From Frigoribacterium sp. (lineage in GTDB: Bacteria; Actinomycetota; Actinomycetes; Actinomycetales; Microbacteriaceae), in the NCBI GenBank assembly GCA_025408445.1, contig JANYIZ010000190.1, positions 1-33,255 of the forward strand: a stretch of DNA of 33,255 bases, in the 5' to 3' direction. This document shows, in pieces, positions 2 through 15,245 of the stretch (position 1 is the stretch's first letter; every line of letters starts with the position of its first letter). The position numbers and the translations under genes are program-made. A model generated the notes under the pieces. The model was not told the origin of the DNA and searched no databases. It saw only the letters and a program-made list of their open reading frames with translations.

Positions 2-1516
2 GACCGGGTCGTTGTGCGAATCACCAGCAAGCCGGGCGAAACCTTCGTCGACCGGATGATCAAGCTGGTCGAGGGCGCATCGCGTCAAAAAACTCCGAAC
101 GAGATCGCGCTGAACATCCTGCTCGCGAGCTTGACGATCGTCTTTGTCATCGTGACGCTGACGCTGAACCCGGTGGCCGCCTATGTCGGCTCCGAGGTGA
201 GTGTTCCCGTGCTCATCGCCCTGCTGGTCTGTCTCATCCCGACCACCATCGGTGCCCTGTTGTCTGCAATCGGAATCGCCGGAATGGACCGGCTCGTTCA
301 GCGCAATGTGCTCGCCATGTCCGGCCGCGCGGTGGAAGCCGCTGGGGACGTGACGACCCTGCTCCTCGACAAGACCGGGACGATCACCTACGGCAACCGC
401 CAGGCAGCCGAGTTCACGGCACTGAGCGGTGTTGAGCGCACGGACTTGATCACTGCTGCCGCTCTCTCCTCGCTGAGTGACCCGACCCCGGAAGGGAAGT
501 CGATCGTCGACCTTGCGGAAACGACCGGATTCAGCACGGGCACGAAGGCAGCGGGCGAGATTGTGCCGTTTACGGCCCAAACGAGAATGAGCGGCCTCGA
601 CCTGGCTGACGGATCCCAGATTCGAAAAGGTGCAGGTTCCGCGGTCATCGCCTGGGTCGAAGAGTCCACGAGGGCGGCCAGCAGTGAGCTTTCCGAGCTC
701 GCAGAACATGTCGACCGCATCGCCAACGCCGGAGGTACACCGCTGGTCGTTGCGACGAAATCGGCGACGGGTGAGGCGCGAATTCTGGGTGTCGTGTACC
801 TGAAGGACATCGTCAAGGCTGGCCTTTCCGAAAGGTTCGCGGAGTTGCGCCTGATGGGAATTCGCACGGTGATGATCACCGGCGACAACCCGCTCACCGC
901 CAAGGCGATAGCCGCTGAAGCAGGGGTTGACGACTATCTTGCCGAGGCGACACCGGAAGACAAGCTCGCCCTGATCCGCAGGGAGCAGGAGGGTGGCAAC
1001 CTCGTTGCGATGACCGGTGACGGTACCAACGATGCTCCCGCGCTTGCGCAGGCGGATGTCGGCGTGGCAATGAATACGGGGACCTCGGCCGCAAAAGAGG
1101 CGGGCAACATGGTCGACCTCGACTCCGACCCGACGAAACTCATCGACATCGTGAGAATCGGCAAGCAACTGCTGATCACCCGCGGATCACTGACGACCTT
1201 CTCGATCGCGAACAACGTGGCCAAGTACTTCGCGATCATCCCGGCCATGTTTGCTGGAGTGTTCCCGGGGCTCGCAGTGCTCAACATCATGCAGCTGCAT
1301 TCTCCGGCTTCGGCGATCCTGTCCGCGGTGATCTTCAACGCGATCATCATCGTGATCCTGATCCCCCTGGCGCTGCGAGGGGTGAGCTACCGGGCGACAT
1401 CCGCGTCCCGCATCCTCAGCCGTAACCTGCTGGTCTATGGCGTCGGCGGCATCGTCGCGCCGTTCATCGGCATCAAGCTGATCGACCTGCTCGTCACCCT
1501 CATCCCCGGCTTCTGA
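2..1516 (+). CDS. kdpB: K+-transporting ATPase subunit B, 5'-truncated by the window edge
   Basis: Catalytic P-type ATPase subunit of the KdpFABC high-affinity potassium pump, in the cytoplasmic membrane. The open frame runs in from base 2; the first in-window start codon (GTG at 14) is internal, because the residues before it ([15 protein letters not shown]) continue the family sequence. About 504 of the usual roughly 690 residues are visible. Seen motifs: the phosphorylation loop DKTGT (Asp codon at 368-370), the hinge [12 protein letters not shown], and [21 protein letters not shown], followed by C-terminal membrane segments. kdpC follows 31 bases after the stop and kdpD and kdpE after that, so this is the end of a kdpABC-DE operon. 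kdpA and kdpF should lie upstream. No lesion is visible. Confidence 0.97.
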
Positions 1517-1547
1517 TACGCCCCGAACTGGAAAGTAGACAACAATC

Positions 1548-2156
1548 ATGAGTTCACCAAGAACGGCGGTCCGCCAATACTGGGTGGCCATCCGTGCGAT
1601 GTTGATATTCACCGTCGTGCTCGGTGTCGGCTACACAGCCGTTATCACCGGCATCGGCCAACTCGCCCTGCCCTACCAAGCCAACGGATCCGCGATCACG
1701 GTCGGGGATGCCACAGTCGGCTCGGCGCTCATCGGCCAGGGGTTCACCGACAAGAAGGGCAAGGCGTTGCCGCAATGGTTCCAGTCCCGCCCATCAGCGG
1801 CAGGGAGCGGATACGACGCCTCGGCTTCGAGCGGGAGTAACTACGGCCCCGAAAATTCCGACCTCATCACGGCCGTGAAAGAACGGAAGGCGGCCATTGC
1901 GCAGCTCGACGGCGTAATGAGCTCGAGCATTCCCGCCGACGCGCTCACGGCATCCAGCTCGGGGCTCGACCCGCACATTTCTCCGGAATACGCCCTGCTT
2001 CAGGTGGAACGAATCGCCCGGGTGCGCACCCTGTCCGTCGCATCGGTCACGAAGCTCGTCGAGGATCAGATCCAGGCACCCGACCTCGGATACCTCGGCC
2101 AGTCGAGAGTCAATGTGCTCGAGCTGAATGTGGCCCTCGCGAAGATGAAGGGCTGA
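1548..2156 (+). CDS. kdpC: K+-transporting ATPase subunit C
   Basis: Single-span accessory subunit that stabilises the KdpB-KdpA complex and supports nucleotide binding. It has 202 residues, the normal length. One N-terminal membrane helix (about residues 15-38, from AMLIFTVVLGVGYTAVITG) is followed by the family signatures GSALIGQGF, FQSRPSAAG and the C-terminal stretch GLDPHISPEYALLQVERIARVR, in which SGLDPHISP is diagnostic. The start is the ATG 31 bases after kdpB, with a weak GGAAAG about 13 bases upstream. kdpD begins 5 bases after the stop, so the genes are very likely cotranscribed. Confidence 0.96.
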   Translation: MSSPRTAVRQYWVAIRAMLIFTVVLGVGYTAVITGIGQLALPYQANGSAITVGDATVGSALIGQGFTDKKGKALPQWFQSRPSAAGSGYDASASSGSNYGPENSDLITAVKERKAAIAQLDGVMSSSIPADALTASSSGLDPHISPEYALLQVERIARVRTLSVASVTKLVEDQIQAPDLGYLGQSRVNVLELNVALAKMKG

Positions 2157-2161
2157 TACCC

Positions 2162-4651
2162 ATGAAGAGAGGGCGGCTCCGAGTGCTGCTCGGCGCCGCT
2201 CCCGGCGTCGGTAAGACCTACACGATGCTGGAAGAAGGAGCACGTCTTCGCGACGAGGGACGTGACGTGGTCGTTGCCGTGGTGGAAACCCACGAGCGCA
2301 AAGCGACCGCTGCGGTGCTCAAGGATCTAGAGATCATTCCGCGTAAAGAGACAGAGCATCGCGGTATCTCTCTCGCCGAGATGGATCTGGACGCGGTGAT
2401 CGCTAGGCGACCCGATGTGGCCCTGGTGGATGAGTTGGCACACACGAATGCCCCTGGCTCGCAGAATGACAAGCGCTGGCAGGATGTGGAAGCCCTTCTT
2501 GACGCGGGTATCAACGTCATGTCCACCGTCAATGTTCAACACATCGAATCGTTGAGCGACGTCGTCGAGCAGATCACGGGGGCGCCGCAGCGAGAAACCG
2601 TGCCCGACACGATACTGCGTGCTGCGGATCAGATCGAAGTAGTGGACCTCGCCCCCCAGGCGCTTCGCGACAGACTCGCCGAGGGCAACGTTTATCCGGC
2701 CGTGCGCATTGATGCGGCCCTCTCTAACTATTTCCGACTCGGCAATCTCACCGCGCTGCGAGAGCTGACACTCCTCTGGTTGGCCGATGAGGTCGATAGT
2801 GCCCTCAAGAGCTATCGCAATGAGCACGGTATCGATAGCAAGTGGGAGGCGCGAGAGAGTGTGGTGGTAGCGCTCACCGGCGGCCCGGAAGGGGAGACCC
2901 TGATCAAACGCGGAGCGCGCATCGCGGCCCGTTCGGCAGGGGGAGATCTCATCGTCGTGCACGTCACGAGCCAGGACGGTCTTGCCGACACCCACCCCGG
3001 TGCCCTCTCCGCGCAGCGTGCGCTGGCCGAAAAACTCGGTGGCACCTACCATCAGGTCATCGGCAACGACATCCCACGGTCACTCGTCGAGTTCGCGAAG
3101 GCATCGAACGCCACCCAGCTCGTCATCGGGGTCAGCCGCCGCAGCCGCCTTGTCGCAGCGCTGACCGGGCCGGGCATCGGTGCGACGGTTGTGCGGGAGT
3201 CTGGCCCCATCGATGTGCACATCGTCACCCATGCCGCCGCGGGCGGCAGATTTGCCCTTCCCCGAATTTCCGGCGCCCTCACTCTCAGACGGCGGATCAT
3301 CGGGTTCATCGTGGCGCTGGCCGCCGGTCCACTCATCACCTGGCTGTTGGTGTCATTCCGCACGAACGACACGATCACGAGCGACGTTCTCGCTTTCCAG
3401 TTGCTGGTGGTGGTGGTTGCGTTGATCGGCGGTATTTGGCCCGCCCTGTTCGCAGCATTACTCTCCGGGCTAACCCTCGATTTTTTCTTCGTTGAGCCTG
3501 TCTATACGGTGACAATTGCGAAGCCGGCCCACATCCTCGCACTGGCGCTGTACATCCTGAACGCCGTGCTCGTCAGTTATGTCGTAGACCAAGCGGCCCG
3601 ACGATCCCGGGTCGCGGTGCGGGCAGCCGCCGAATCGGAATTGCTTGCCACGATCGCAGGCAGCGTGCTCCGTGGCCAGGATGCCCTCGAGGCACTCATT
3701 ACCCGCACAAGAGAATCCTTCAAATTAAACAGTGTTCGAGTCGTCGGAGCGGACGACGTCCTCTTCGAGTCAGGAATAGTCAAGGACGACGATCGCCTCA
3801 CCGTGCTTCCGGTGGGAGAGCGCGGCACCCTGGAATTGCGCGGCCCTAATTTGCCCGCATCCGAGCGACGGCTCCTTTCTGTAATCGCTGCTCAAATCGA
3901 TGCAGCGCTTGAACACAACGCACTGGTGAAGACCGCTGGCGAAATAGAGCCGCTTGCCCAAGCCGACCGTATGCGCAGCGCCCTGCTCGCCGCGGTGGGG
4001 CACGACCTGCGAAGACCCCTCACCGCAGCTACTGCAGCAGTCACCGGCCTGAGGAGCACCGATGTCACGTGGTCGGTGTCTGATCGCGATGAGTTGCTCG
4101 CAACCGCCCAGGAGAGTTTGGAGACCCTCGCCGACCTGGTGACCAATCTTCTCGACGTCAGCAGGGTTCAGGCTGGTGCTCTGGCGGTGACAACTGCACC
4201 CCTCCTCGTCGAGGATGTGATTCTGGAAGCCATCGACGAACTCGGTCTTGGCCCCGCGGATGTGGAGTTGGGGATAGCGGAGGATCTGCCCGAAGTGCTC
4301 GCGGACCACGGGTTGCTACAGCGCGTGCTGGTTAACCTGCTGGAGAATGCTCGCAGATATTCAGAGCCGGGCGAGCCGGTTCGAATTTCGGCCAGTACCT
4401 TCGCAGGTTCGGTGGAAGTGCGGGTGACCGACACCGGGCCCGGTGTGCCGCAAGACAGACGCGAAGATATCTTCGTGCCGTTCCAGCGGCTGGGTGACAC
4501 CGACAATTCCACGGGGCTCGGCCTTGGCCTGGCGCTATCGAAGGGATTCGTGGAGGGGATGGGGGGAACGCTGCAGGCGGACGACACCCCCGGTGGGGGG
4601 CTGACGATGGTCATTTCTCTGCCCGTGATTAAAGACAGGGTCTTGACATGA
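2162..4651 (+). CDS. kdpD: Osmosensitive K+ channel sensor histidine kinase
   Basis: Membrane sensor kinase that controls kdp expression through KdpE. It has 829 residues, slightly shorter than the E. coli protein (about 894). Order: N-terminal KdpD domain with Walker A GAAPGVGKT (residues 11-19) and a Walker-B-like VALVDELAHTNAPG (about 85-98); a universal-stress-protein-like domain (about 235-360); four closely spaced membrane helices (about 375-475); a GAF-like linker; a HisKA box LLAAVGHDLRRPLT with phospho-acceptor His614; and an ATPase domain with N box NLLENARRYS, G1 DTGPGVP and G2 GLGLGLALSKG. The ATG follows kdpC by 5 bases. The stop overlaps the kdpE start (ATGA), so the two are translationally coupled. 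The combination of domains is specific to KdpD. Confidence 0.97.
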   Translation: MKRGRLRVLLGAAPGVGKTYTMLEEGARLRDEGRDVVVAVVETHERKATAAVLKDLEIIPRKETEHRGISLAEMDLDAVIARRPDVALVDELAHTNAPGSQNDKRWQDVEALLDAGINVMSTVNVQHIESLSDVVEQITGAPQRETVPDTILRAADQIEVVDLAPQALRDRLAEGNVYPAVRIDAALSNYFRLGNLTALRELTLLWLADEVDSALKSYRNEHGIDSKWEARESVVVALTGGPEGETLIKRGARIAARSAGGDLIVVHVTSQDGLADTHPGALSAQRALAEKLGGTYHQVIGNDIPRSLVEFAKASNATQLVIGVSRRSRLVAALTGPGIGATVVRESGPIDVHIVTHAAAGGRFALPRISGALTLRRRIIGFIVALAAGPLITWLLVSFRTNDTITSDVLAFQLLVVVVALIGGIWPALFAALLSGLTLDFFFVEPVYTVTIAKPAHILALALYILNAVLVSYVVDQAARRSRVAVRAAAESELLATIAGSVLRGQDALEALITRTRESFKLNSVRVVGADDVLFESGIVKDDDRLTVLPVGERGTLELRGPNLPASERRLLSVIAAQIDAALEHNALVKTAGEIEPLAQADRMRSALLAAVGHDLRRPLTAATAAVTGLRSTDVTWSVSDRDELLATAQESLETLADLVTNLLDVSRVQAGALAVTTAPLLVEDVILEAIDELGLGPADVELGIAEDLPEVLADHGLLQRVLVNLLENARRYSEPGEPVRISASTFAGSVEVRVTDTGPGVPQDRREDIFVPFQRLGDTDNSTGLGLGLALSKGFVEGMGGTLQADDTPGGGLTMVISLPVIKDRVLT

Positions 4652-5346
4652 AAATCCTCATCGCTGATGACGACCCACAAATAATCCGTGCCCTCAGAGT
4701 GACGCTCGGCGCGCGCGGGTATGACATCGTGACAGCCAGCAACGGCGTGGAGGCACTAAACCAGGCAATCAGCCATCACCCCGACCTCGTGATGCTCGAT
4801 CTCGGCATGCCCGCGTTGAACGGGATAGAGGTCATCGAGGGCCTGCGCGGATGGACTCAGGTTCCCATACTGGTCGTGTCGGGACGAACGGATGCGGCCG
4901 ACAAAGTCGCCGCCCTTGACGCCGGCGCCGACGACTATGTGACTAAGCCGTTTTCCGCAGAGGAGTTGCTCGCGAGAGTCAGGGCGCTCACCCGGCGTGT
5001 GCCGGCGGGCGACGACGAGCCTGTCACGATCTTCGGCGATGTCAGGGTGGACTTCTCGGCCAAGCAGGTCACCCGAGGCGACGCTAAGCATCCCGAGTCG
5101 ATCCGGCTCACTCCGACGGAGTGGCGCATCCTCGAGCTGCTGGTGCAGAACCCGGAAAAGCTCATCACGCGGGAAAGCATCCTCACCCAGGTGTGGGGGC
5201 CCCACCACACCAGAGACACCGGATATCTGAGATTGTATTTCGCGCAACTTCGCAAGAAACTCGAGCCGGTGCCGTCTCGCCCGCGATACTTCGTGACCGT
5301 GCTCGGCATGGGATATCGGTTTGTTCCGGACGAACTATCCGACTAA
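4648..5346 (+). CDS. kdpE: KDP operon response regulator
   Basis: OmpR/PhoB-type response regulator, 232 residues, that binds upstream of kdpFABC once phosphorylated by KdpD. The receiver domain has the acidic pocket (ADDDPQ, residues 6-11), phospho-acceptor Asp51 in LVMLDLGMP, and the conserved Lys in YVTKPFS. The C-terminal winged helix is shown by LTPTEWRILELL, the recognition region ITRESILTQVWG and the final wing YFVTVLGMGYRF. Its start codon overlaps the kdpD stop by 4 bases. The 195 bases downstream before the next gene hold no clear gene and no hairpin with a T-tract. Confidence 0.96.
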   Translation: MKILIADDDPQIIRALRVTLGARGYDIVTASNGVEALNQAISHHPDLVMLDLGMPALNGIEVIEGLRGWTQVPILVVSGRTDAADKVAALDAGADDYVTKPFSAEELLARVRALTRRVPAGDDEPVTIFGDVRVDFSAKQVTRGDAKHPESIRLTPTEWRILELLVQNPEKLITRESILTQVWGPHHTRDTGYLRLYFAQLRKKLEPVPSRPRYFVTVLGMGYRFVPDELSD

Positions 5347-8605: not shown

Positions 8606-8795
8606 AAGAGCGGATCGAGGTCACGCTTGACACGGTCGAGTACACGCCGAAGACCGCGTGGGCGGCGATGAGGTCCCCGCCGTGGTGGGGCGTGCGCATA
8701 GATACGCACAGAGTCGCCGGGAGCGCGGCCGGGTGACCGGGTCGGCCTCCTGCCTGGTCCGGAATGTTCGTGCATTCCCGAAGGTTGCTGGTCTT

Positions 8796-9320
8796 ATGGG
8801 AACTAAACCGGGAAAGCTTCCGCCTCAATTGTCACTTTCTCTGACCGGAGCAGGCTCGACGGACGACCTCTATCTGGGTACGGGCGAGGGCGGCCGTTTC
8901 ACGCTTGTGGTCTTCTATCGCGGGCTGCATTGCCCGGTCTGCCGACGACAGCTGAAGGAACTGGACGAACGGCTGGCCGAGCTTCGAGCGGTCGGAGTCG
9001 GTCGAGTCGTTGCCGTGAGCATGGAGTCTGAGGAGCGAAGTGAACAGGTCGTCGCTCGCTGGGGGCTGAGCTCGTTGCCAGTGGCGTGGGGGCTCACGGA
9101 ACAACAAGCGCGGGAGTGGGGGCTGTTCATCTCCACTGCGATCAAGGAGGGGGAGCCGTCCGTGTTTAGCGAACCGGGAATGTTCATCCTTGATTCCGAT
9201 GGCACCGTGTATTGGAGCAACGTAGCGAGCATGCCGTTCGGGCGCCCGCCCCTCGACGACATCATCGCCGGAATCGTCTACGCCAACGATCACGACTATC
9301 CCGCCCGCGGCTCGGCCTGA
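8796..9320 (+). CDS. Peroxiredoxin-like (AhpC/TSA) family protein
   Basis: Thioredoxin-fold protein of 174 residues, probably a cytoplasmic thiol peroxidase or oxidoreductase. The core motif LVVFYRGLHCPVCRRQLKEL holds a peroxidatic-type Cys in a CPVC pair at the start of helix 1, with the downstream Arg pattern of AhpC/TSA-like proteins. Later strands VVAVSMESEERSEQV and GMFILDSDGTVYWSNV are typical of the fold. The frame is open for 46 codons upstream, but family similarity begins at MGTKPGKLPPQ, so I chose the ATG at 8796. The exact substrate cannot be told. It lies between an integrase remnant and a thioredoxin-fold gene, so it could be cargo of an old insertion. Confidence 0.85.
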   Translation: MGTKPGKLPPQLSLSLTGAGSTDDLYLGTGEGGRFTLVVFYRGLHCPVCRRQLKELDERLAELRAVGVGRVVAVSMESEERSEQVVARWGLSSLPVAWGLTEQQAREWGLFISTAIKEGEPSVFSEPGMFILDSDGTVYWSNVASMPFGRPPLDDIIAGIVYANDHDYPARGSA

Positions 9321-9563
9321 TCATGCGTCCTCTGCCTTCCAAATGGGATCATCGCTTCGCCCAGGGGGACACGCTTGCCCCGCTTCACCGGGTCGGCGCG
9401 ATCGGGGCAGTGTGACGATCCCGACCCCGCTCACGCCAACAGGCGCAAAACTCGCGAGCCCTGCGGTGGTCTTGGCAACAGTCACGGATCGTCGTTGCGG
9501 TGAAGCATGGCTCGCATGCGGGCGATCAATTATCGGTCGATCGGCGCATTAGATTCACTGGTC

Positions 9564-9872
9564 TTAGAGGCGTCGCCGGAGAGCGTCCTCAATATCACCC
9601 TGTAATGGAATGCCCGCAAAATGAGCGCCGGCTCGATAGATCCGGCAAGCAAGGTCCGTTGTGCGGCCGTCACTCGGGAACAGGTCGGTTCCGTCCACCA
9701 AAATCGTCGGCGAGCCAGCGAACGGTACCTGTGAGGCATCTTCTGGTGTGCGCAATTCCACGAAGCTCACCTCCGTGTTGGATACGCCGAGGTCTTTTAG
9801 CGCGGTGCGAATCCGGGAGCCTGTCTCTGCCCAGTTCGGGCAGTCCTCAATGTGAAGTACTGAAATGTCCAT
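9564..9872 (-). CDS. Small thioredoxin-fold protein with a CPNW site
   Basis: Protein of 102 residues. The strand-loop-helix MDISVLHIEDCPNWAETG has a Cys at the active-site position but Trp where the second Cys of CxxC would be. Then come a helix, the strand VSFVELR, and the cis-Pro loop FAGSPTILVDGTDLFP, followed by LACRIYRAGAHFAGIPLQGD and a final helix. This is the pattern of small thioredoxin-like proteins often seen near heavy-metal or redox genes. That association is general knowledge and not shown here. The upstream extension of the frame is ignored because homology starts at MDIS. Its ATG shares a CATG palindrome with a start option of the divergent membrane gene. Confidence 0.75.
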   Translation of the reverse strand: MDISVLHIEDCPNWAETGSRIRTALKDLGVSNTEVSFVELRTPEDASQVPFAGSPTILVDGTDLFPSDGRTTDLACRIYRAGAHFAGIPLQGDIEDALRRRL

Positions 9873-10320
9873 GAGGTCAGTGTGCGCCGAAGCAGGACCG
9901 ATCAGCGGTATCGCCCGAGGCCTGATCTTCGGAATGCTGATGGGGGTCATGGGAATGTTGGCCATGATCGCCAGCATGGTCGGTTCGAATGCTCTGTAGG
10001 TGGGCTTCGCCATCCAGATGACGATGTCCGTAGTGATTGGCATGGGACTTACCGTTCCTTTCGGCAACCGCCTGCTGACCGGCTACCTCAGAGGAGCGGT
10101 TGTGGAAATCGTCTACGGCGTTATCCGCTGGATCCTCGGACTTCTGCTAACCATCCCGATGATTTTCGAAATGCCACCGTTCAGCGTCAGTGCGACCAGC
10201 CTTGCCTGCCTGATGGGTCGCATGCTCTGGGGGCTTACCCTCGGAATGCTTGCAACACGAGTACTGAGGGGGCGAGATGACCGAGGAGGTGAACATCCTC
10301 CCCAACTCGTCTCCGCCTGA
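9871..10320 (+). pseudogene. Four-helix membrane protein split by an in-frame TAG
   Basis: One continuous frame of 149 codons encodes a hydrophobic protein interrupted only by TAG at 9997-9999. Before the stop: ISGIARGLIFGMLMGVMGML and AMIASMVGSNAL. After it, starting with GTG at 10000: VGFAIQMTMSVVIGMGLTVP, then GNRLLTGYLRGAVVEIVYGV, two more helices and LGMLATRVLRGRDD. The stop falls in a helix-to-helix loop where related sequences, as I recall them, have Trp, so a single TGG to TAG change explains it. Possible readings are a broken gene, a separately translated 106-residue C-terminal piece from GTG 10000, or a sequence error. Function unknown. Start options are ATG 9865, ATG 9871 or GTG 9880. 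Confidence 0.6.
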
Positions 10321-10332
10321 GTTTAATCCGCA

Positions 10333-10529
10333 CGGTGTTGAGAAACTCCACCACTCAGCGGGACGTGACTAAGGACATACCGCGATCCCGCTGGAATCGC
10401 CCGGCCGCCAATGCGATTTCAGTCAGCGATGCGCCCACAGCGGAGTTAGAGACCTGTAACGAAATCCCCTATTGCGCTGGCATCCCTGAGGGGGATACTG
10501 GACTCCCGCGACAGCGGTGTCGAGAAACT
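10333..10529 (+). repeat. Imperfect 15-bp direct repeat upstream of the flavoprotein operon
   Basis: CGGTGTTGAGAAACT at 10333-10347 recurs as CGGTGTCGAGAAACT at 10515-10529, with one mismatch in 15. The second copy ends 24 bases before the start codon of the operon at 10554. The region between (10348-10514) holds no gene I believe. Two spaced copies in a promoter region could be regulator sites, but chance or duplication is not excluded. Confidence 0.35.
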
Positions 10530-10553
10530 TGAGCAACGATGCCAGGAGACCGG

Positions 10554-11687
10554 ATGACCATGATGCAGTCGACTCTCGAAGAAGCTGTGGCGCAGGTAAC
10601 GACCGTAGCTGCCGCTCACGCCCAACAGGTCGATACCGATGGAACCTACCCCGTTGATTCAGTCGCGGCCCTCAGGTCGAGCGGGCTGCTCGGCCTGGTG
10701 ATCAGCGAGGATGTCGGCGGCATGGGGGCCGGTCCAGTCGAGTTCACGGAGGTGCTGGGCGCAATCGCGGCGGCGTGCGGCTCGACCGCGATGATCTATC
10801 TGATGCATGTCGCGGCCGCGGTGACGGTCGCATCCGCCCCGCCGGCCGCGATGCCGGACCTCCTTTCGCGAATGGCATCGGGCGAGGTCCTCGGCACTCT
10901 GGCGTTCAGCGAGAAAGGGTCGCGCTCACACTTCTGGGCTCCCGTGTCTGAATCTGTCGCCGACGGGGACGATCTCCGCTTCACCGCATACAAAAGCTGG
11001 GTGACCTCGGCCGGCTACGCCGACGTGTACGTGATGTCGTCGCAAAGCGCGGTCGACCCGGAGACCGTCGACCTGTATGCGATCTCGGCTTCAACGCCAG
11101 GTTTGGACATCGCCGGTCCGTGGAGCGGACTGGGGCTGCGCGGCAACGCGTCGAGCCCGATGACAGTAGCGGTAACTATTCCGTCCAGCTATCGCCTCGG
11201 TGAGCCGGGCAGCGGGTTCGGCACGATGATGGCCACCGTGCTTCCCTGGTTCAACCTGGGCAACTCCGCAGTGTCGCTCGGGCTCTCCACCGCAGCCGTT
11301 GATGGCGCTGTCGCACACGTGGCCGGCGCCCGGCTGGAGCATCTGGACCAGGCGCTGTCCGCGTTACCGACGATCCGGGCACAAATTGCGGAGATGAGCA
11401 TCGCGTTGATGGCGCAGGAGTCGTACCTCGCCCAAGCAGCCGCGAAAGTGGCGAGCCCAGCTGACGACACTCCACTGTTCGTGCTGGGAGTGAAGGCCTC
11501 CGCTAATGACGCCGCGCTGACGATCACCGAATCGGCGATGCGGGTGTGTGGCGGGGCGGCGTTCTCGAAACACCTGCCCATCGAGCGGGCTTTCCGGGAT
11601 GCGCGCGCTGGCTCGGTCATGGCACCGACCGCAGATGTGCTTTACGACTTCTACGGCAAGGCCCTCACCGGCCTTCCGCTGTTCTGA
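10554..11687 (+). CDS. Acyl-CoA dehydrogenase-like flavoprotein
   Basis: Protein of 377 residues with the acyl-CoA dehydrogenase fold. An N-terminal helical domain (SGLLGLVISEDVGGMGAG) is followed by a beta domain (LAFSEKGSRSHFW, then YKSWVTSAGYADVYVM and LGLRGNASSPM) and a C-terminal helical domain with CGGAAFSKHLPIERAFRDAR. Where many dehydrogenases have the catalytic Glu in a YEGT-type motif after RDAR, this one reads AGSVMAPTADVL, so the usual base is missing. DszC/SfnC-type flavin monooxygenases share this fold and also lack that Glu, so an oxygenase or other flavin reaction is possible. ATG 10554 is preferred over 10539 because AGGAGA lies 6 bases before it. It is first in a five-gene operon, 7 bases ahead of the next gene. 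Confidence 0.88.
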   Translation: MTMMQSTLEEAVAQVTTVAAAHAQQVDTDGTYPVDSVAALRSSGLLGLVISEDVGGMGAGPVEFTEVLGAIAAACGSTAMIYLMHVAAAVTVASAPPAAMPDLLSRMASGEVLGTLAFSEKGSRSHFWAPVSESVADGDDLRFTAYKSWVTSAGYADVYVMSSQSAVDPETVDLYAISASTPGLDIAGPWSGLGLRGNASSPMTVAVTIPSSYRLGEPGSGFGTMMATVLPWFNLGNSAVSLGLSTAAVDGAVAHVAGARLEHLDQALSALPTIRAQIAEMSIALMAQESYLAQAAAKVASPADDTPLFVLGVKASANDAALTITESAMRVCGGAAFSKHLPIERAFRDARAGSVMAPTADVLYDFYGKALTGLPLF

Positions 11688-11694
11688 GTTTCGG

Positions 11695-12519
11695 ATGTCG
11701 AAGCTCGTCGGAGCACCCCTGCTCATCGGAGCGGTCGCCTACACGCCGAACGTCGTTCCCATCTGGGAAGGTATCCGCGAGTACTTCGACGAACCCGCGA
11801 CGGCAACGGATTTCGTGTTGTTCTCGAACTATGGCCGCTTGGTCGACGCACTGCAGGCGGAGATGATCGATATCGCCTGGAATGCGAACCTCGCGTATGC
11901 GCGTTCAGTGCTGCAGACCGATGGGCACGTGCGGGCGCTGGCCATGCGCGACACGGACGCCACCTTTTCGACGGTGTTCGTGGCGGCCGCGGGAAGCGGC
12001 TGGTCCGGGCCTGGCGACATCGCGACCCGGCGCCTGGCACTCGGGTCGGCGGACTCAGCGCATGCCGCGATCCTGTCGTTGCATTATCTGCGCGAAGCCG
12101 GGGTGGATGTCGATCACATGCAAATTCAACGCTTCAACAGTGACATCGGTAAACACGGTGACACCGGTCGCAGCGAGCTGGACGCGATCGACGCGGTGCT
12201 CGCCGGAGATGCTGATGTTGCCGCGATCGGCATCACAGTGCGGGAGAACATTGGCCGCGGTGACCTGATGCCCGGGATGCTCGAGCCGGTCTGGCAGACC
12301 GAGATATACTCGCATTGGATGTTCACGGCACTCGACACCCTGCCCGAAGCGGTCTATGCACCGTGGGTGGCGAAGCTACTCGCCATGGACTGGGAGGTCC
12401 CAGCGCACCGCCGCATCCTCGAACTGGAGGGACTCACCCAATGGGTCGAACCCCACCTCGAGGGCTACAACGGACTGTTTACGGCGATTGCGGAACAGGG
12501 CGTCGACTCCCGATGGTAG
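11695..12519 (+). CDS. PhnD/SsuA-like substrate-binding protein without signal peptide
   Basis: Protein of 274 residues with the type 2 periplasmic-binding fold. The first strand and loop (PLLIGAVAYTPNVVPIWEGI), the hinge-side LVDALQAEMIDIAWNANLAY and the ligand-side DIATRRLALGSADSAHA match phosphonate/sulfonate-type binding proteins (PhnD or SsuA-like). The helix HYLREAGVDVD and the strand AVLAGDADVAAIGITVREN follow, and EIYSHWMFTALDTLPE is the usual late segment. There is no Sec signal or lipobox, and no permease or ATPase gene nearby, so it may act in the cytoplasm as a binding protein or enzyme. ATG 11695 starts exactly where homology begins. The stop overlaps the next gene by 7 bases. 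Confidence 0.82.
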   Translation: MSKLVGAPLLIGAVAYTPNVVPIWEGIREYFDEPATATDFVLFSNYGRLVDALQAEMIDIAWNANLAYARSVLQTDGHVRALAMRDTDATFSTVFVAAAGSGWSGPGDIATRRLALGSADSAHAAILSLHYLREAGVDVDHMQIQRFNSDIGKHGDTGRSELDAIDAVLAGDADVAAIGITVRENIGRGDLMPGMLEPVWQTEIYSHWMFTALDTLPEAVYAPWVAKLLAMDWEVPAHRRILELEGLTQWVEPHLEGYNGLFTAIAEQGVDSRW

Positions 12520-13511
12520 TCATGGCGCTGATGCGCACCGTAGAACAGATGGCCGAGGGCGATACGGCCGAGTTTGCGGTGGCGTCGGCAAGCGAACTGG
12601 ACCTCGTACGCCGCTGGTGTGAAAAAACGGGAAACACCCTCGTAAGCACTCTGATGGTCGAACAGGACACCGGGCAGGTGACCGTGGGCCGCGGACGACC
12701 GCGCAACCCCGGCAGCATGATCCCCGCCGATCGGATGCCCGGGGCGAGGCTCTGGCTTTACACCAACGTCCACTGCAATCTGGCGTGCGACTATTGCTGC
12801 GTTGCCTCATCGCCGAAGACCGACCCGCGTCTGCTCGGCATCGACAACATTCAGGCACTCGTCACCGAAGCCGCCGACTGGGGCGTGCGCGAGCTGTATC
12901 TCACCGGCGGCGAGCCGTTCCTGCTCCCCGACATCGACGTCATCGTGCGGGCCTGCGTCGACCGGTTGCCGACCACACTGCTGACCAACGGCATGCTGTT
13001 CCGCGGCCAGGGGCTTCGCAAACTTCAGGCGATGCCACGCCAAGGCTTCGCGCTGCAAATCAGTGTTGACTCGCCAACCCCCGAGGTACACGACTCGCAC
13101 CGCGGCGCTGGGAGCTGGAAACGGGCACTTACCGGCATCAGGGTCGCACTCGACGAAGGATTCACCGTGCGCGTCGCCGCGACCATCTCAGCCCACGACG
13201 ACCCGGCCCTCGATGAGCTACACGCGCTATTCGACGGGCTCGGGATCCCGCGAGCCGACCAGGTTATCCGCCCCATCGCGCACCAGGGGGTCGCGGAGGA
13301 AGGGGTGGCTTTTACGCGGGAATCGCTGATCCCCGAGGTAACCGTGACGGCGGACGGTATCTACTGGCATCCCGTCGCCGCGCTTGACGAGAACGCGCTC
13401 GTGAGTCGCCAGATACTGCCCCTTGCCCCCGCGCTCGACCGGGTCAGCGAACTTTTCACCCAACAGTGGTCGTCAGTAACGGCCACCACCTCGATGTTCG
13501 CCTGTGCCTGA
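12513..13511 (+). CDS. Radical SAM protein with a TusA-like N-terminal domain
   Basis: Protein of 332 residues. The first 60 or so (MRTVEQMAEGDTAEFAVAS, then LVRRWCEKTGNTLVS) look like a TusA sulfur-carrier fold, but the Cys-Pro-x-Pro strand that carries the active thiol is missing from the chosen start. The radical SAM core follows, with the 4Fe-4S ligands Cys88, Cys92 and Cys95 in NVHCNLACDYCC, the SAM-binding YLTGGEPFLLPD, LTNGMLF and QISVDSPTPEVHDSHRG. No SPASM-type cysteine cluster is visible; only FACA ends the chain. ATG 12513, 12522 and 12531 are all possible; 12513 overlaps the preceding stop. The frame is open upstream to 12315, where LPMVV continues the TusA pattern. Substrate unknown; sulfur insertion or peptide/small-molecule chemistry is inference. 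Confidence 0.85.
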   Translation: MVVMALMRTVEQMAEGDTAEFAVASASELDLVRRWCEKTGNTLVSTLMVEQDTGQVTVGRGRPRNPGSMIPADRMPGARLWLYTNVHCNLACDYCCVASSPKTDPRLLGIDNIQALVTEAADWGVRELYLTGGEPFLLPDIDVIVRACVDRLPTTLLTNGMLFRGQGLRKLQAMPRQGFALQISVDSPTPEVHDSHRGAGSWKRALTGIRVALDEGFTVRVAATISAHDDPALDELHALFDGLGIPRADQVIRPIAHQGVAEEGVAFTRESLIPEVTVTADGIYWHPVAALDENALVSRQILPLAPALDRVSELFTQQWSSVTATTSMFACA

Positions 13512-13528
13512 AACGAAACGGGAACGCC

Positions 13529-14077
13529 ATGACCACAACCACCCGAACAACCAGAGCGTCAGTCATCAACGAGATCGAGACCGGGCGTCCCACTCGCGCC
13601 GTGCTCGCCGCCGTGCGGATCGCTGTAGGGTTGATGTGGCTGCAGAATGTGAACTGGAAACGACCGCCCGACTTCGGGCAAGCCGCGCACAACGGCCTAT
13701 ACCAGTACACCGCTGACGCGGTGAAACATCCGGTGCTCGGAGCTTTTAGCTGGCTGGTACAGAATGTCATCTTCCCCAATTTCGTTCTCTTCGGCTGGGG
13801 TGTGCTGATAGCGGAATTCTGCCTCGGCGCGTTCCTGCTCGTCGGATTCCTGACACGCTTCTGGGCGACCATCGGCATCCTCCAGACCATCGCCATCACC
13901 CTCTCGGTGCTGAACACCCCCGGAGAGTGGCAGTGGAGCTACTACCTGATGTTCGCAGCGCAATTCGTCATTCTGGGAACCGCCGCCGGGCGGATCGCCG
14001 GTGTCGATGGAGTGCTGAGACCCCGGTGGTCGCTCGGCTCAGGTCGGCCGGCTCGGATTGCGATGGTTCTCTCATGA
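13529..14077 (+). CDS. DoxX-family membrane protein
   Basis: Integral membrane protein of 182 residues with four predicted helices. Diagnostic features are LAAVRIAVGLMWLQNVNWKR, the amphipathic part FGQAAHNGLYQYTADAV, then FGWGVLIAEFCLGAFLLVGF, LTRFWATIGILQTIAITL and WSYYLMFAAQFVILGTAAGR. The DoxX/DoxD group includes the quinone-reducing subunit of thiosulfate:quinone oxidoreductase, and related proteins work with sulfur or redox partners. I chose ATG 13529 because MTTTTRTTRAS is a plausible cytoplasmic start, with AACGGGAA ahead of it. It follows the radical SAM gene by 17 bases and its stop overlaps the next start, so it belongs to the operon. It could move electrons from the operon's chemistry to the quinone pool (inference). 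Confidence 0.83.
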   Translation: MTTTTRTTRASVINEIETGRPTRAVLAAVRIAVGLMWLQNVNWKRPPDFGQAAHNGLYQYTADAVKHPVLGAFSWLVQNVIFPNFVLFGWGVLIAEFCLGAFLLVGFLTRFWATIGILQTIAITLSVLNTPGEWQWSYYLMFAAQFVILGTAAGRIAGVDGVLRPRWSLGSGRPARIAMVLS

Positions 14078-14466
14078 GCGCCACCACACCTACCGGTAGT
14101 ACAGGTTCCCCATCAGCGGTCTGGCGCACCCGGGGCCTGATAGTCGCAGGTTTCACCGCGCTCTGCTCGCTGTTCTCGCTGCTTCACTACACGCCGCTAC
14201 AGTTCGTATCGGTCAACCTGGTGCAAACACTCGTCCTGGTCGTACTCGGTGCCCTCGCCGCGCTCGGCTGTGCGCTGCGGTTGCCCGTGCTCCTCATGGC
14301 AGCCGGCGCGATCCTCATCGTCGTCGGGCTGGTGCGCCTCGTCACCTATCCTGCGACTATCGGTATCATCTCCGGCTCTGTCAACGCCGCCGCCCTAATG
14401 ATCGGACTCGGCACCGCCCTGATCTCAATATGGATCACCTCGCGGCCGATGCCAGAGCGTGGTTGA
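14074..14466 (+). CDS. Small four-helix membrane protein
   Basis: Protein of 130 residues with about four membrane helices: LIVAGFTALCSLFSLLHY, FVSVNLVQTLVLVVLGALAA, LLMAAGAILIVVGLVRLV and SVNAAALMIGLGTALISIWI, then a short basic tail ending PMPERG. The ATG overlaps the DoxX stop (ATGA), so translation is coupled and it is the last gene of the five-gene operon. I do not recognise the family. Its tie to DoxX suggests an accessory membrane subunit, which is inference. Confidence 0.75.
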   Translation: MSATTPTGSTGSPSAVWRTRGLIVAGFTALCSLFSLLHYTPLQFVSVNLVQTLVLVVLGALAALGCALRLPVLLMAAGAILIVVGLVRLVTYPATIGIISGSVNAAALMIGLGTALISIWITSRPMPERG

Positions 14467-14526
14467 TAACACCAAGGTTGATTGGCCGGGTGCAACATGC
14501 CCGTCGTCAAGACCACAAGCGCACTC

Positions 14527-14544
14527 CGCACCCTAAACGGTGCG
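14527..14544 (+). terminator. Perfect 6-bp hairpin after the operon
   Basis: CGCACC-CTAAAC-GGTGCG lies 60 bases after the operon's last stop. It has no T-tract, so if it terminates transcription at all it is a weak or non-canonical terminator. The surrounding 14467-14687 holds nothing else I can support. Confidence 0.25.
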
Positions 14545-14687
14545 AGCTACGCTTTGCCCCTCGGAAGCACTGGGCGGTGGGTGGGCAGGCCACGAACAAC
14601 CCTCCATAGTGTTGCAACGCGGTGCAGCATCAGCATGCTCGGAAGCTAAAAAATTCGGCCTCCGCGCTGTTGCGCAGGACGTTCCGC

Positions 14688-15245
14688 TTACCGGACGCCC
14701 TCCTCTGGCGAGATAGTGCCTATCGCGGCCTGAATCGTCCGAATATTCGACCCAAGGATGCCTGACGAGAGAAGACCGGAACCGAGCGGGGCCGCTGAGT
14801 TCGCTCCAAGTAGTGGCAACTGCTGAAGCGTTGCCCGGACTTGAGCATTCATATGCTCGAGTTGCCAGGAGATCTCGTCGGAAGCGGCCGTGGGTTGGTC
14901 CGAGGCGGCCAGCTCGGCCGCTTTCGCGGCGTAGGCGGCTGCGCCGAGAGCGTGCGCACCCATGTGAGCGACTTCGGAAGCTTGTCCAGCAGCCCGGGCG
15001 GCTGCCACTGCCGCGGGAGAGCTCACTGCGTGCGCGGCTCGACCAGCAACGAAGCGCTGACGAATTTCACCGGCGGCATCACGTTCACCCTGGGCAAACG
15101 CCCGAGCGCGAGCGATGGCATCACGTGGTCGATGGTCTGTCGGAGCCTCGGTCTCGAACAAGACCAGGACTCGCTCAGCGCAGTCCGCCGCCCACATTGC
15201 GACGAGGCGGCGGTCAGCTTCGCTCAGTGATTGTGGGGAAAGCAT
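14688..15245 (-). CDS. Imm5-like putative immunity protein
   Basis: Helical Ala-rich protein of 185 residues. The opening MLSPQSLSEADRRLVAMWA, then DCAERVLVLFE, DHRPRDAIARARAFAQGE and AARAAGQASEVAHMGAHALG followed by AAAYAAKAAEL, is the pattern of the family annotated as putative immunity protein (Imm5). That label comes from association with polymorphic toxins elsewhere. No toxin gene is visible beside it, so the role here is open. I placed the start at ATG 15245, where similarity begins, although the frame is open 25 codons upstream. The C-terminal 40 residues (LLGANSAAPLGSGLLSSG) are Gly/Ser-rich and unlike the helical core. Confidence 0.7.
   Translation of the reverse strand: MLSPQSLSEADRRLVAMWAADCAERVLVLFETEAPTDHRPRDAIARARAFAQGERDAAGEIRQRFVAGRAAHAVSSPAAVAAARAAGQASEVAHMGAHALGAAAYAAKAAELAASDQPTAASDEISWQLEHMNAQVRATLQQLPLLGANSAAPLGSGLLSSGILGSNIRTIQAAIGTISPEEGVR

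What the first reader, a model, noticed from the sequence alone, without database searches (positions are those of the whole stretch)
10554..14466. Five-gene operon joining a flavoprotein, a PhnD/SsuA-like protein, a TusA-radical SAM protein and DoxX
Seen: gaps of 7 and 17 bases and two start/stop overlaps link five plus-strand genes. Known: DoxX relatives pass electrons to quinones in thiosulfate oxidation, TusA carries sulfur, SsuA binds sulfonates, and DszC/SfnC-type flavoproteins oxidise organosulfur compounds. Inferred: together they may process a sulfur-containing or phosphonate-like small molecule, with the binding protein acting inside the cell. I know no described pathway with this gene set.
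Basis: partly seen in the sequence, partly recalled or inferred. Interest (0 to 1): 0.78.

Follow-up and report, generated by a model that had tools for sequence, protein, structure and literature searches.

The report
Five-gene cassette near sulfur-sugar genes
Five linked genes, relatives of tuberculosis-bacterium genes of unknown role, appear to move between soil bacteria as a unit and keep company with genes like those that build a rare sulfur-containing surface sugar, so they may help to make or modify such a sugar.

Summary
The five genes are real and placed as described (gaps 7 and 17 bases, overlaps 7 and 4). They belong to families that NCBIfam names after M. tuberculosis Rv1678-Rv1681 (four of five over cut-off). 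Against six Cryobacterium/Arthrobacter-type copies the DNA match stops at the edges of the five genes: a transferable cassette. New here: all 12 genomes with A-B-C put to carry a GT2 polyprenyl-phosphate-sugar-synthase-like gene (11 besides the genome that supplied the query), 11 of 12 together with MTA phosphorylase, epimerase and DUF2064, and 6 of 12 within 20 kb; 0 of 20 control stretches had GT2, DUF2064 or MTA phosphorylase. That set resembles the methylthioxylose locus of lipoarabinomannan. Best reading: an accessory module of a methylthio-pentose glycan pathway, the radical SAM enzyme acting on a nucleoside or pentose intermediate. The reaction is not shown, and the window's own genome keeps the two clusters on different contigs. 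The flavoprotein lacks the acyl-CoA dehydrogenase Glu, the TusA-like part lacks CPxP, and the binding protein shows no export signal. Organosulfur or phosphonate breakdown is not supported.

The parts
10420..10553 (+). Leader of the cassette: GATACT (10494-10499) as a candidate -10 element (by eye), ribosome-binding AGGAG (10544-10548). Similarity to other copies starts at 10420-10422 (L004, L005) or at 10506-10508 (L006-L010).
   Evidence: blastn boundaries; leader alignment of 8 copies, only partly conserved. The sigma-70 scan found no plus-strand site; no Rfam match up to E 1 in 9300-15000.
10554..11687 (+). Gene A: Rv1679/FadE16-family flavoprotein, acyl-CoA dehydrogenase-like but with Ala357 in place of the catalytic Glu
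   Evidence: NF049984 635 bits over 600; alignment to human SCAD 2vig; MAPT motif in 23 of 23 sequences, SRSHFWAP in 22 of 23
11695..12519 (+). Gene B: Rv1680-family PhnD-like binding-protein fold, apparently cytoplasmic
   Evidence: NF049985 449 bits over 400; PF12974 1.2e-27; PDB sequence match 7s6g 2.9e-10; N-terminus judged by inspection, no signal-peptide program run; structure model failed (pLDDT 49)
12513..13511 (+). Gene C: Rv1681-family radical SAM protein (Cys 88, 92, 95) with a truncated TusA-like N-terminal part
   Evidence: NF049973 505 bits over 380; PF04055 88 bits over 29.5; conserved Cys; AlphaFold model pLDDT 77, best PDB fold match MoaA 1tv7
13529..14077 (+). Gene D: DoxX/DoxD-like membrane protein, counterpart of the N-terminal half of a fused D-E protein in relatives
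   Evidence: PF04173 31.8 bits over 22.7; 45% identity over 150 aa to the 303-aa fused protein of the M. vanbaalenii plasmid
14074..14466 (+). Gene E: small membrane protein, Rv1678 C-terminal family
   Evidence: NF049986 78.5 bits over 50

Best explanation
The five genes are an accessory module of a pathway that turns a 5'-modified adenosine (methylthioadenosine or a like compound) into an unusual 5-deoxy-pentose on a cell-surface glycan. Basic pathway (from family functions, partly recalled): MTA phosphorylase releases adenine and gives a 5-modified ribose-1-phosphate; a DUF2064 enzyme activates it as a nucleotide sugar; an SDR epimerase changes the sugar; a GT2 enzyme of MtxS type loads it on polyprenyl phosphate; a GT87/GT-C-like enzyme transfers it. 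The cassette adds radical chemistry: C, a radical SAM enzyme, acts on the nucleoside or pentose intermediate. A, a flavoprotein that is unlikely to be a normal acyl-CoA dehydrogenase, and B, a PhnD-fold protein in the cytoplasm that holds an anionic small molecule, prepare or finish its substrate; D-E hand electrons to the quinone pool. Shown: gene identity, conservation, co-occurrence, linkage, lost active-site residues. Inferred: the order of steps and every reaction of A-E. Given pathway membership I rate tailoring of the sugar or its sulfur about 0.4, making an alternative 5'-substituted adenosine about 0.3, a support role about 0.3.
For:: the GT2 is in 12 of 12 genomes with A-B-C (G199 supplied the query, so 11 of 11 independent) and in 7 of the 10 other genomes of that call. 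MTAP, epimerase, GT2 and DUF2064 together in 11 of 12 (G300 lacks MTAP on an 8.5-kb contig); the own genome has them on contig C53 (L112), where DUF2064 passes Pfam (57.7>25.8). Linkage: 6 of 12 within 20 kb (2 to 18 kb); 5 of 11 without G199. Shared clusters of different order: L119 EPI-A-B-C-D-MTAP..GT2-DUF; L050 A-B-C-EPI-GT2-DUF-GT87-D-E; L017 D-A-B-C-MTAP-EPI-GT2-DUF. G606 has a second GT2 just upstream of D (L131). Named record: Miltoncostaea oceani plasmid, DoxX-CMD-radical SAM-GT2-DUF2064-A-B. C-like relatives outside the core: 8 of 13 loci have two or more of the set nearby. Control: 0 of 20 stretches of 19.9 kb from eight of the cassette genomes had GT2, DUF2064, MTAP or GT87; 1 had a partial epimerase match. 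Co-occurrence with DUF2064: B+ 6 of 199 in the own family, all 6 among 53, p 2.9e-4; B+ 10 of 394 in the class, all 10 among 167, p 1.6e-4. MtxS/MtxT roles: figure legend of PMC8780516.
Against: In 6 of the 12 genomes, the window's own included, the clusters lie on different contigs. None of the set was found in the 20-21 kb stretches L004-L009, L012 and L013, nor in L133, L134 and L135 (L010, L011 and L015 are shorter, also none). The MTX-type genes occur without the cassette (five genomes, presumed mycobacterial), so it is not needed for the basic pathway. A-B pairs without C and without the set nearby occur in 4 of 4 loci L127-L130; two of those genomes (G334, G547) have no such GT2. The M. 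vanbaalenii plasmid copy has none of the set nearby. DUF2064 hits in B+ genomes are below the TIGR04282 cut-off (13 of 394 genomes are over it, 0 of 199 in the family), and no curated MtxS model or M. tuberculosis sequence was compared. Nearest solved relatives of C are mixed: nucleoside- or nucleotide-acting (BlsE, MoaA, AbmM, viperin) and peptide-acting (SkfB, SuiB, EpeE, PqqE) (roles partly recalled), so they do not tell its substrate. P values ignore relatedness; three of the six linked genomes are one family. No chemistry was measured.
Confidence: 0.55

Rival explanations
1. Uptake or breakdown of an organosulfur or phosphonate compound: B binds it, A oxidises the C-S bond, the TusA-like part, C and D pass on sulfur and electrons.
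For: B has the PhnD-type fold; A has sub-cut-off similarity to 3-sulfinopropanoyl-CoA desulfinase (106 of 600 bits), SfnB (78.5 of 430.9) and DszC (47.6 of 850).
Against: No visible export signal on B; no ABC permease or ATPase among 13 other window genes searched; no CPxP in the TusA-like part; context is nucleoside-to-glycan.
Confidence: 0.12
2. The link to MTA phosphorylase is only housekeeping: it removes 5'-deoxyadenosine made by radical SAM protein C.
For: Salvage of this by-product is described (PMC6079011 and PMC8102628: titles and abstract starts seen in the listing).
Against: The link to GT2, DUF2064 and epimerase persists where no MTAP was found on the stretch (L057, L059, L060, L061, L138; L057 and L059 are short). 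Salvage needs no glycosyltransferases.
Confidence: 0.1
3. The module belongs to metalloid (arsenic or selenium) chemistry, like the arsenosugar route with radical SAM ArsS, making a metalloid-sugar.
For: DUF2064 and GT2 match models named arsenosugar biosynthesis (TIGR04282 112 of 134 bits, TIGR04283 50 of 182); selA, selB and selD lie near the Miltoncostaea copy; the methyltransferase near the M. vanbaalenii copy resembles arsenite methyltransferase models (97.5 of 263 bits; best DVU_1556 136 of 155); an ArsR/SmtB-family regulator lies near the C piece of L140; SelL-related and DF-family proteins lie upstream in the window; B has 69 of 250 bits to a putative selenate-binding family.
Against: The window's SelL and DF proteins found no match in the other stretches searched; MTAP models pass their cut-offs (L115 479.5>306; L017 385.7>306), which points to a thio-adenosine.
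Confidence: 0.15
4. The existing single-gene labels are right: FadE16 in fatty-acid beta-oxidation, Rv1680 a phosphonate transporter part, Rv1681 (MoeX) in molybdopterin synthesis.
For: FadE16 is counted with beta-oxidation enzymes (PMC11250799, passages); Rv1680 was annotated by TM-score to PhnD (PMC8562490, one table passage); C resembles MoaA in sequence and fold.
Against: Catalytic Glu of the dehydrogenase replaced by Ala; C scores 60 of 284 bits for MoaA (TIGR02666); three separate labels do not explain one cassette whose DNA similarity stops at its edges.
Confidence: 0.04

Closest known systems
M. tuberculosis Rv1678-Rv1681 families (NCBIfam NF049986, NF049984, NF049985, NF049973)
   Same: A, B, C and E pass the curated cut-offs
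   Different: D and E are separate genes here; a fused D-E type occurs in the M. vanbaalenii plasmid and its matches L011, L012, L017 and L049. Order A-B-C-D-E here, D(-E)-A-B-C in other copies. Function of the named families not found in the papers seen
Methylthioxylose (MTX) capping pathway of lipoarabinomannan (MtxS Rv0539, MtxT Rv0541c; PMC8780516 legend)
   Same: MTAP, epimerase, GT2, DUF2064 and a GT87-like gene in the own genome (L112); stretch L115 has the order that I recall for Rv0535-Rv0540
   Different: A-E is not part of the pathway as described in the passages read; no MTX shown in the window's organism; no direct comparison with the M. tuberculosis proteins
Radical SAM plus nucleoside phosphorylase or nucleosidase pathways: HpnH/HpnG, MqnE/MqnB, ArsS arsenosugar (recalled)
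   Same: A radical SAM enzyme with PNP-superfamily and sugar-transfer genes; C has 57 of 225 bits to HpnH
   Different: C passes no cut-off of those families; its substrate is unknown
BlsE and AbmM (radical SAM enzymes on nucleoside sugars; roles recalled)
   Same: Among the nearest solved proteins to C (7vob 7.7e-11, 8wm2 2.4e-6)
   Different: The similarity is that of the radical SAM core, shared with peptide-acting enzymes; different partners

Membership tests
Rv1678-Rv1681 family set | each protein over the NCBIfam cut-off | tested here: met
   A 635>600, B 449>400, C 505>380, E 78.5>50; D has no model of its own there but matches the N-terminal half of a fused protein
Rv1678-Rv1681 family set | A-B-C adjacent on one strand | tested here: met
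   for the window; the same in the core copies whose stretch covers all three. In L017 and L136 some frames are broken up and were read as pieces; L140 holds a C piece without A or B
Acyl-CoA dehydrogenase | catalytic Glu in the YEGT loop | tested here: not met
   SCAD YEGT aligns with MAPT, Glu to Ala (that this Glu is the catalytic one is recalled); MAPT in 19 of 19 core and 4 of 4 distant sequences
TusA sulfur carrier | CPxP Cys (motif recalled) | tested here: not met
   17.5 of 28.6 bits, match starts at profile position 13; no CPxP in 19 of 19
Phosphonate/sulfonate ABC transporter binding protein | export signal and ABC permease/ATPase genes | tested here: inconclusive
   no signal by inspection; none among 13 other window genes searched; the remaining window ORFs were not searched
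Thiosulfate:quinone oxidoreductase (DoxD) | NF041179 cut-off | tested here: not met
   30.5 of 300 bits; the Pfam DoxD domain is met, 31.8>22.7
Radical SAM superfamily | CxxxCxxC and PF04055 | tested here: met
   88 bits over 29.5; C88, C92, C95 invariant in 13 sequences
Methylthioxylose pathway | MTAP, epimerase, MtxS-type GT2, DUF2064 and GT-C-like gene in the genome | tested here: met
   L112 of the own genome by profiles built here; by homology and order only, M. tuberculosis sequences not on hand
Methylthioxylose pathway | 5-deoxy-5-methylthio-xylose on a glycan | not testable with these tools
   needs glycan chemistry
Methylthioxylose pathway | cassette clustered with the set in this genome | tested here: not met
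   window on C190, set on C53; draft of 220 contigs, distance unknown

The most novel reading that the evidence does not exclude
C is a radical SAM enzyme that builds a new 5'-substituted adenosine (bonding the 5'-deoxyadenosyl group to a sulfur- or other small acceptor supplied by A and B), which MTA phosphorylase, epimerase, DUF2064 and the MtxS-type transferase then turn into a so far unseen 5-modified pentose on actinobacterial envelope glycans: a general radical-SAM nucleoside-to-glycan route, moved between genera as a cassette and kept in tuberculosis-type bacteria.
Probability: 0.18. Interest if true: 0.85.

Novelty: new variant of a known kind. Interest (0 to 1): 0.62.

Why it matters
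In the papers seen, FadE16 is filed under beta-oxidation and Rv1680 under phosphonate transport; Rv1681 carries the name MoeX. Tying the family set to the pathway of a surface sugar that is a target of tuberculosis tests (PMC6258851, title and abstract start in the listing) would correct those labels, point to an unrecognised radical SAM step in envelope glycan synthesis, and offer environmental bacteria in which to test it.

Tried and rejected
Rejected: TusA sulfur transfer (no CPxP); thiosulfate oxidation; a normal acyl-CoA dehydrogenase; phosphonate transport; an RNA switch of a known family in front of the operon (no Rfam match up to E 1 in 9300-15000); the window's SelL/DF neighbours as part of the system (no match in the other stretches searched). 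The plasmid collection holds C in three records and B in three, at 36-67% identity only (near records may be left out).

Led nowhere: AlphaFold of B (pLDDT 49), so no fold search with it; the second structural aligner was absent; ten neighbours of the A-B-only loci gave no coherent picture; longest-ORF gene calling in high-GC loci gave antisense shadows, so I relied on profile hits to stop-to-stop frames. The Angala 2017 paper on MTX synthesis is not held: MtxS/MtxT roles come from a figure legend in PMC8780516 and passages of PMC8081860. The gene order Rv0535-Rv0541c, the roles of HpnH/HpnG, MqnE/MqnB, ArsS, AbmM and BlsE, and the CPxP motif are recalled.

Paper searches bearing on novelty: (open-licence PMC only; one search listed 40 of 326 papers, one search listed 25 of 101, one search listed 10 of 22). 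In the titles and abstract starts listed, and the passages read, I saw no link of Rv1678-Rv1681 with MTX; that is not proof of absence.

Full report
Observation. The five plus-strand genes exist as described: A 10554-11687, B 11695-12519, C 12513-13511, D 13529-14077, E 14074-14466, with gaps of 7 and 17 bases and overlaps of 7 and 4 bases. The start of A at 10554 follows an AGGAG at 10544-10548; the leader is partly conserved in 8 copies.

Identity. NCBIfam places A, B, C and E over curated cut-offs in families named after M. tuberculosis genes: Rv1679 (FadE16), Rv1680 (binding-protein-like), Rv1681 (radical SAM) and the C-terminal part of Rv1678. D is DoxD-like and matches the N-terminal half of a 303-aa protein beside A-B-C in a Mycolicibacterium plasmid (45% over 150 aa). 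The set is therefore a known group of families. Paper searches showed nothing on a common function in the titles and abstract starts listed. In passages read, FadE16 is counted with beta-oxidation (PMC11250799) and Rv1680 with phosphonate transport by structure similarity (PMC8562490); Rv1681 is cited as a diagnostic marker (reference list of PMC5946903).

Active sites. A resembles acyl-CoA dehydrogenases, but the YEGT loop of human SCAD (2vig), whose Glu is the catalytic base (recalled), aligns with MAPT. MAPT is kept in 19 of 19 core and 4 of 4 distant sequences, SRSHFWAP in 19 of 19 and 3 of 4 (L127 differs); the Miltoncostaea A has MAPT and SRAQFWAP. C has the CxxxCxxC of radical SAM enzymes, but its TusA-like part has no CPxP in 19 of 19 sequences; the model shows helix-strand-helix-strand-strand there. 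B has no visible export signal, and D-x-GKHGDTGRSELDA is invariant in the 12 sequences of alignment A1. Solved relatives of C by sequence include BlsE, SkfB, MoaA, AbmM (8wm2), SuiB, EpeE/YydG, PqqE and ChlB; by fold MoaA, SkfB, BlsE, SuiB, AbmM, EpeE and viperin. They act on nucleotides or on peptides and do not settle the substrate.

A transferable cassette. Window DNA matches Cryobacterium (L004, L005, L007, L008), Paenarthrobacter (L006) and Arthrobacter (L009) at 79-89% over 3,952-4,055 columns. The match starts at 10420-10508 and ends at 14448-14483, and blastn (E 1e-10) found no match of the window's flanks in those stretches. C is 93% (L006) and 90% (L009) identical to the window's C, although Arthrobacter and Cryobacterium are of different families (recalled). 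A MAG labelled Aeromicrobium holds two fragments, L003 at 96.7% DNA identity (its match runs on to 14645, past the cassette) and L018 at 85.6%.

Names of genomes. I take the window's family to be Microbacteriaceae because contig C14 of its member G465 has the length of a Cryobacterium contig (301,849 bases), and the family of G150 to be mycobacterial from gene order and fused D-E; both are inferences.

Gene context. In L017 (Prescottella) and L050 (G199) A-B-C is beside MTA phosphorylase, epimerase, GT2, DUF2064 and, in L050, a GT87-like gene and D-E. These two loci gave me the idea; the other genomes test it. Of 22 genomes given, the 12 with A-B-C all have the GT2 (G199 is the source of the query); of the 10 others 7 have it. 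Three further B+ genomes (G744, G798, G849) were not put; all three have DUF2064. Profile scans found MTAP, epimerase, GT2 and DUF2064 together in 11 of the 12; G300 lacks MTAP on a short contig. The own genome has the set on contig C53 (L112). In 6 of 12 the GT2 lies within 20 kb of B: G199 2 kb, G331 4.5, G379 5.5, G453 7.9, G311 14.4, G150 18.3. In G331 the module sits between epimerase and MTAP on one strand (L119). In G606 a second GT2 lies just upstream of D (L131). A named record shows DoxX, an AhpD-like (CMD) protein, radical SAM, GT2, DUF2064, A and B in a row (Miltoncostaea oceani plasmid); its GT2 protein also matches the GT87 profile.

Wider relatives of C. Thirteen further loci hold C-like proteins without the TusA-like part: L016, the 11 best sub-cut-off loci that I fetched (L051-L061), and L138. 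Seven sit beside a CMD protein (L056-L061, L138), with D and E profile hits in L056-L060 and a DoxX-like gene in L061 and L138. Six are fused to a metallophosphoesterase domain (PF12850 over its cut-off of 27 in 6 of 6: L016, L051-L055). Eight of the 13 have two or more of the MTX-type genes nearby (L016, L053, L054, L057, L059, L060, L061, L138; L053 and L054 are close relatives); five do not (L051, L052, L055, and L056 and L058 on short contigs).

Controls. Twenty stretches of 19.9 kb at round-number positions, from eight of the 12 genomes, gave no GT2, DUF2064, MTAP or GT87 match; one (L157) had a partial epimerase match. In 199 genomes of the family B occurs in 6 and DUF2064 in 53, and all 6 are among the 53 (p 2.9e-4); in 394 class genomes 10 of 10 are among 167 (p 1.6e-4). 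Three B+ genomes are in both samples, and relatedness makes these p values optimistic. Most DUF2064 hits lie below the TIGR04282 cut-off (13 of 394 and 0 of 199 over it).

Against. The set often occurs without the cassette, and 6 of the 12 genomes, the window's included, hold the two on different contigs. The 20-21 kb stretches L004-L009, L012 and L013, and L133-L135, show none of the set. A-B pairs without C occur in L127-L130 with none of the set nearby, and G334 and G547 lack the GT2. The plasmid copy L139 has none nearby. The link shows at most that the cassette depends on, or adds to, the pathway, not that it is a core part.

Comparison with the known. MtxS (Rv0539) makes the polyprenyl-phosphate donor and MtxT (Rv0541c) transfers methylthioxylose to lipoarabinomannan caps (PMC8780516 legend). 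Stretch L115 (G150) has MTAP, epimerase, GT2 and DUF2064 in the order that I recall for Rv0535-Rv0540, with MTAP well over its cut-off (479.5>306). I had no M. tuberculosis sequence to confirm this.

Verdict. The most likely role is an accessory radical-SAM module of a methylthio-pentose glycan pathway. Pathway membership rests on gene context and is fairly strong; the reactions are inferred.

Noticed in passing
window 8658-9320 (+) and 9564-9836 (-): A SelL-related redox protein (47.5 of 120 bits) and a DF-family (seleno)protein relative (51.6 of 70 bits) upstream of the cassette; a SelL-related protein also lies near the M. vanbaalenii plasmid copy (L139:609-1148, 73.5 of 120 bits).
   Followed up: partly
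L138:5727-9860: selB, selA and selD upstream of the DoxX-CMD-radical SAM-GT2-DUF2064-A-B run on the Miltoncostaea oceani plasmid.
   Followed up: no
L139:14673-17041: TrsS-like radical SAM protein (335.5 of 490 bits) and DVU_1556-type methyltransferase (136 of 155 bits) near the cassette copy of the M. vanbaalenii plasmid; a distant relative of that methyltransferase lies in the own genome's MTX-type cluster (L112:7352-8122, 35.6 of 155 bits).
   Followed up: no
L016:7456-9048, L053:7445-8833, L139:7625-8995: Related MFS transporters (1e-99 to 1e-104 to the L139 protein) lie near C or C-like genes in these loci (and in L054): a possible transport partner.
   Followed up: partly
L127, L128, L129, L130: A-B pairs without C in four genomes: the flavoprotein and the binding-fold protein form a unit of their own.
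   Followed up: partly
L003 and L018: A MAG labelled Aeromicrobium holds two fragments of the cassette that differ from each other (96.7% and 85.6% DNA identity to the window): transfer, two copies or mis-binning.
   Followed up: no
L140:7689-8618: A piece of a C gene without A or B on a Rhodococcus oxybenzonivorans plasmid, beside metal-related genes.
   Followed up: no
window 14-5346: kdpB (776 bits over 528, partial) and a kdpD-like gene; the ORFs 1548-2156 and 4648-5346 are probably kdpC and kdpE (by position only).
   Followed up: no
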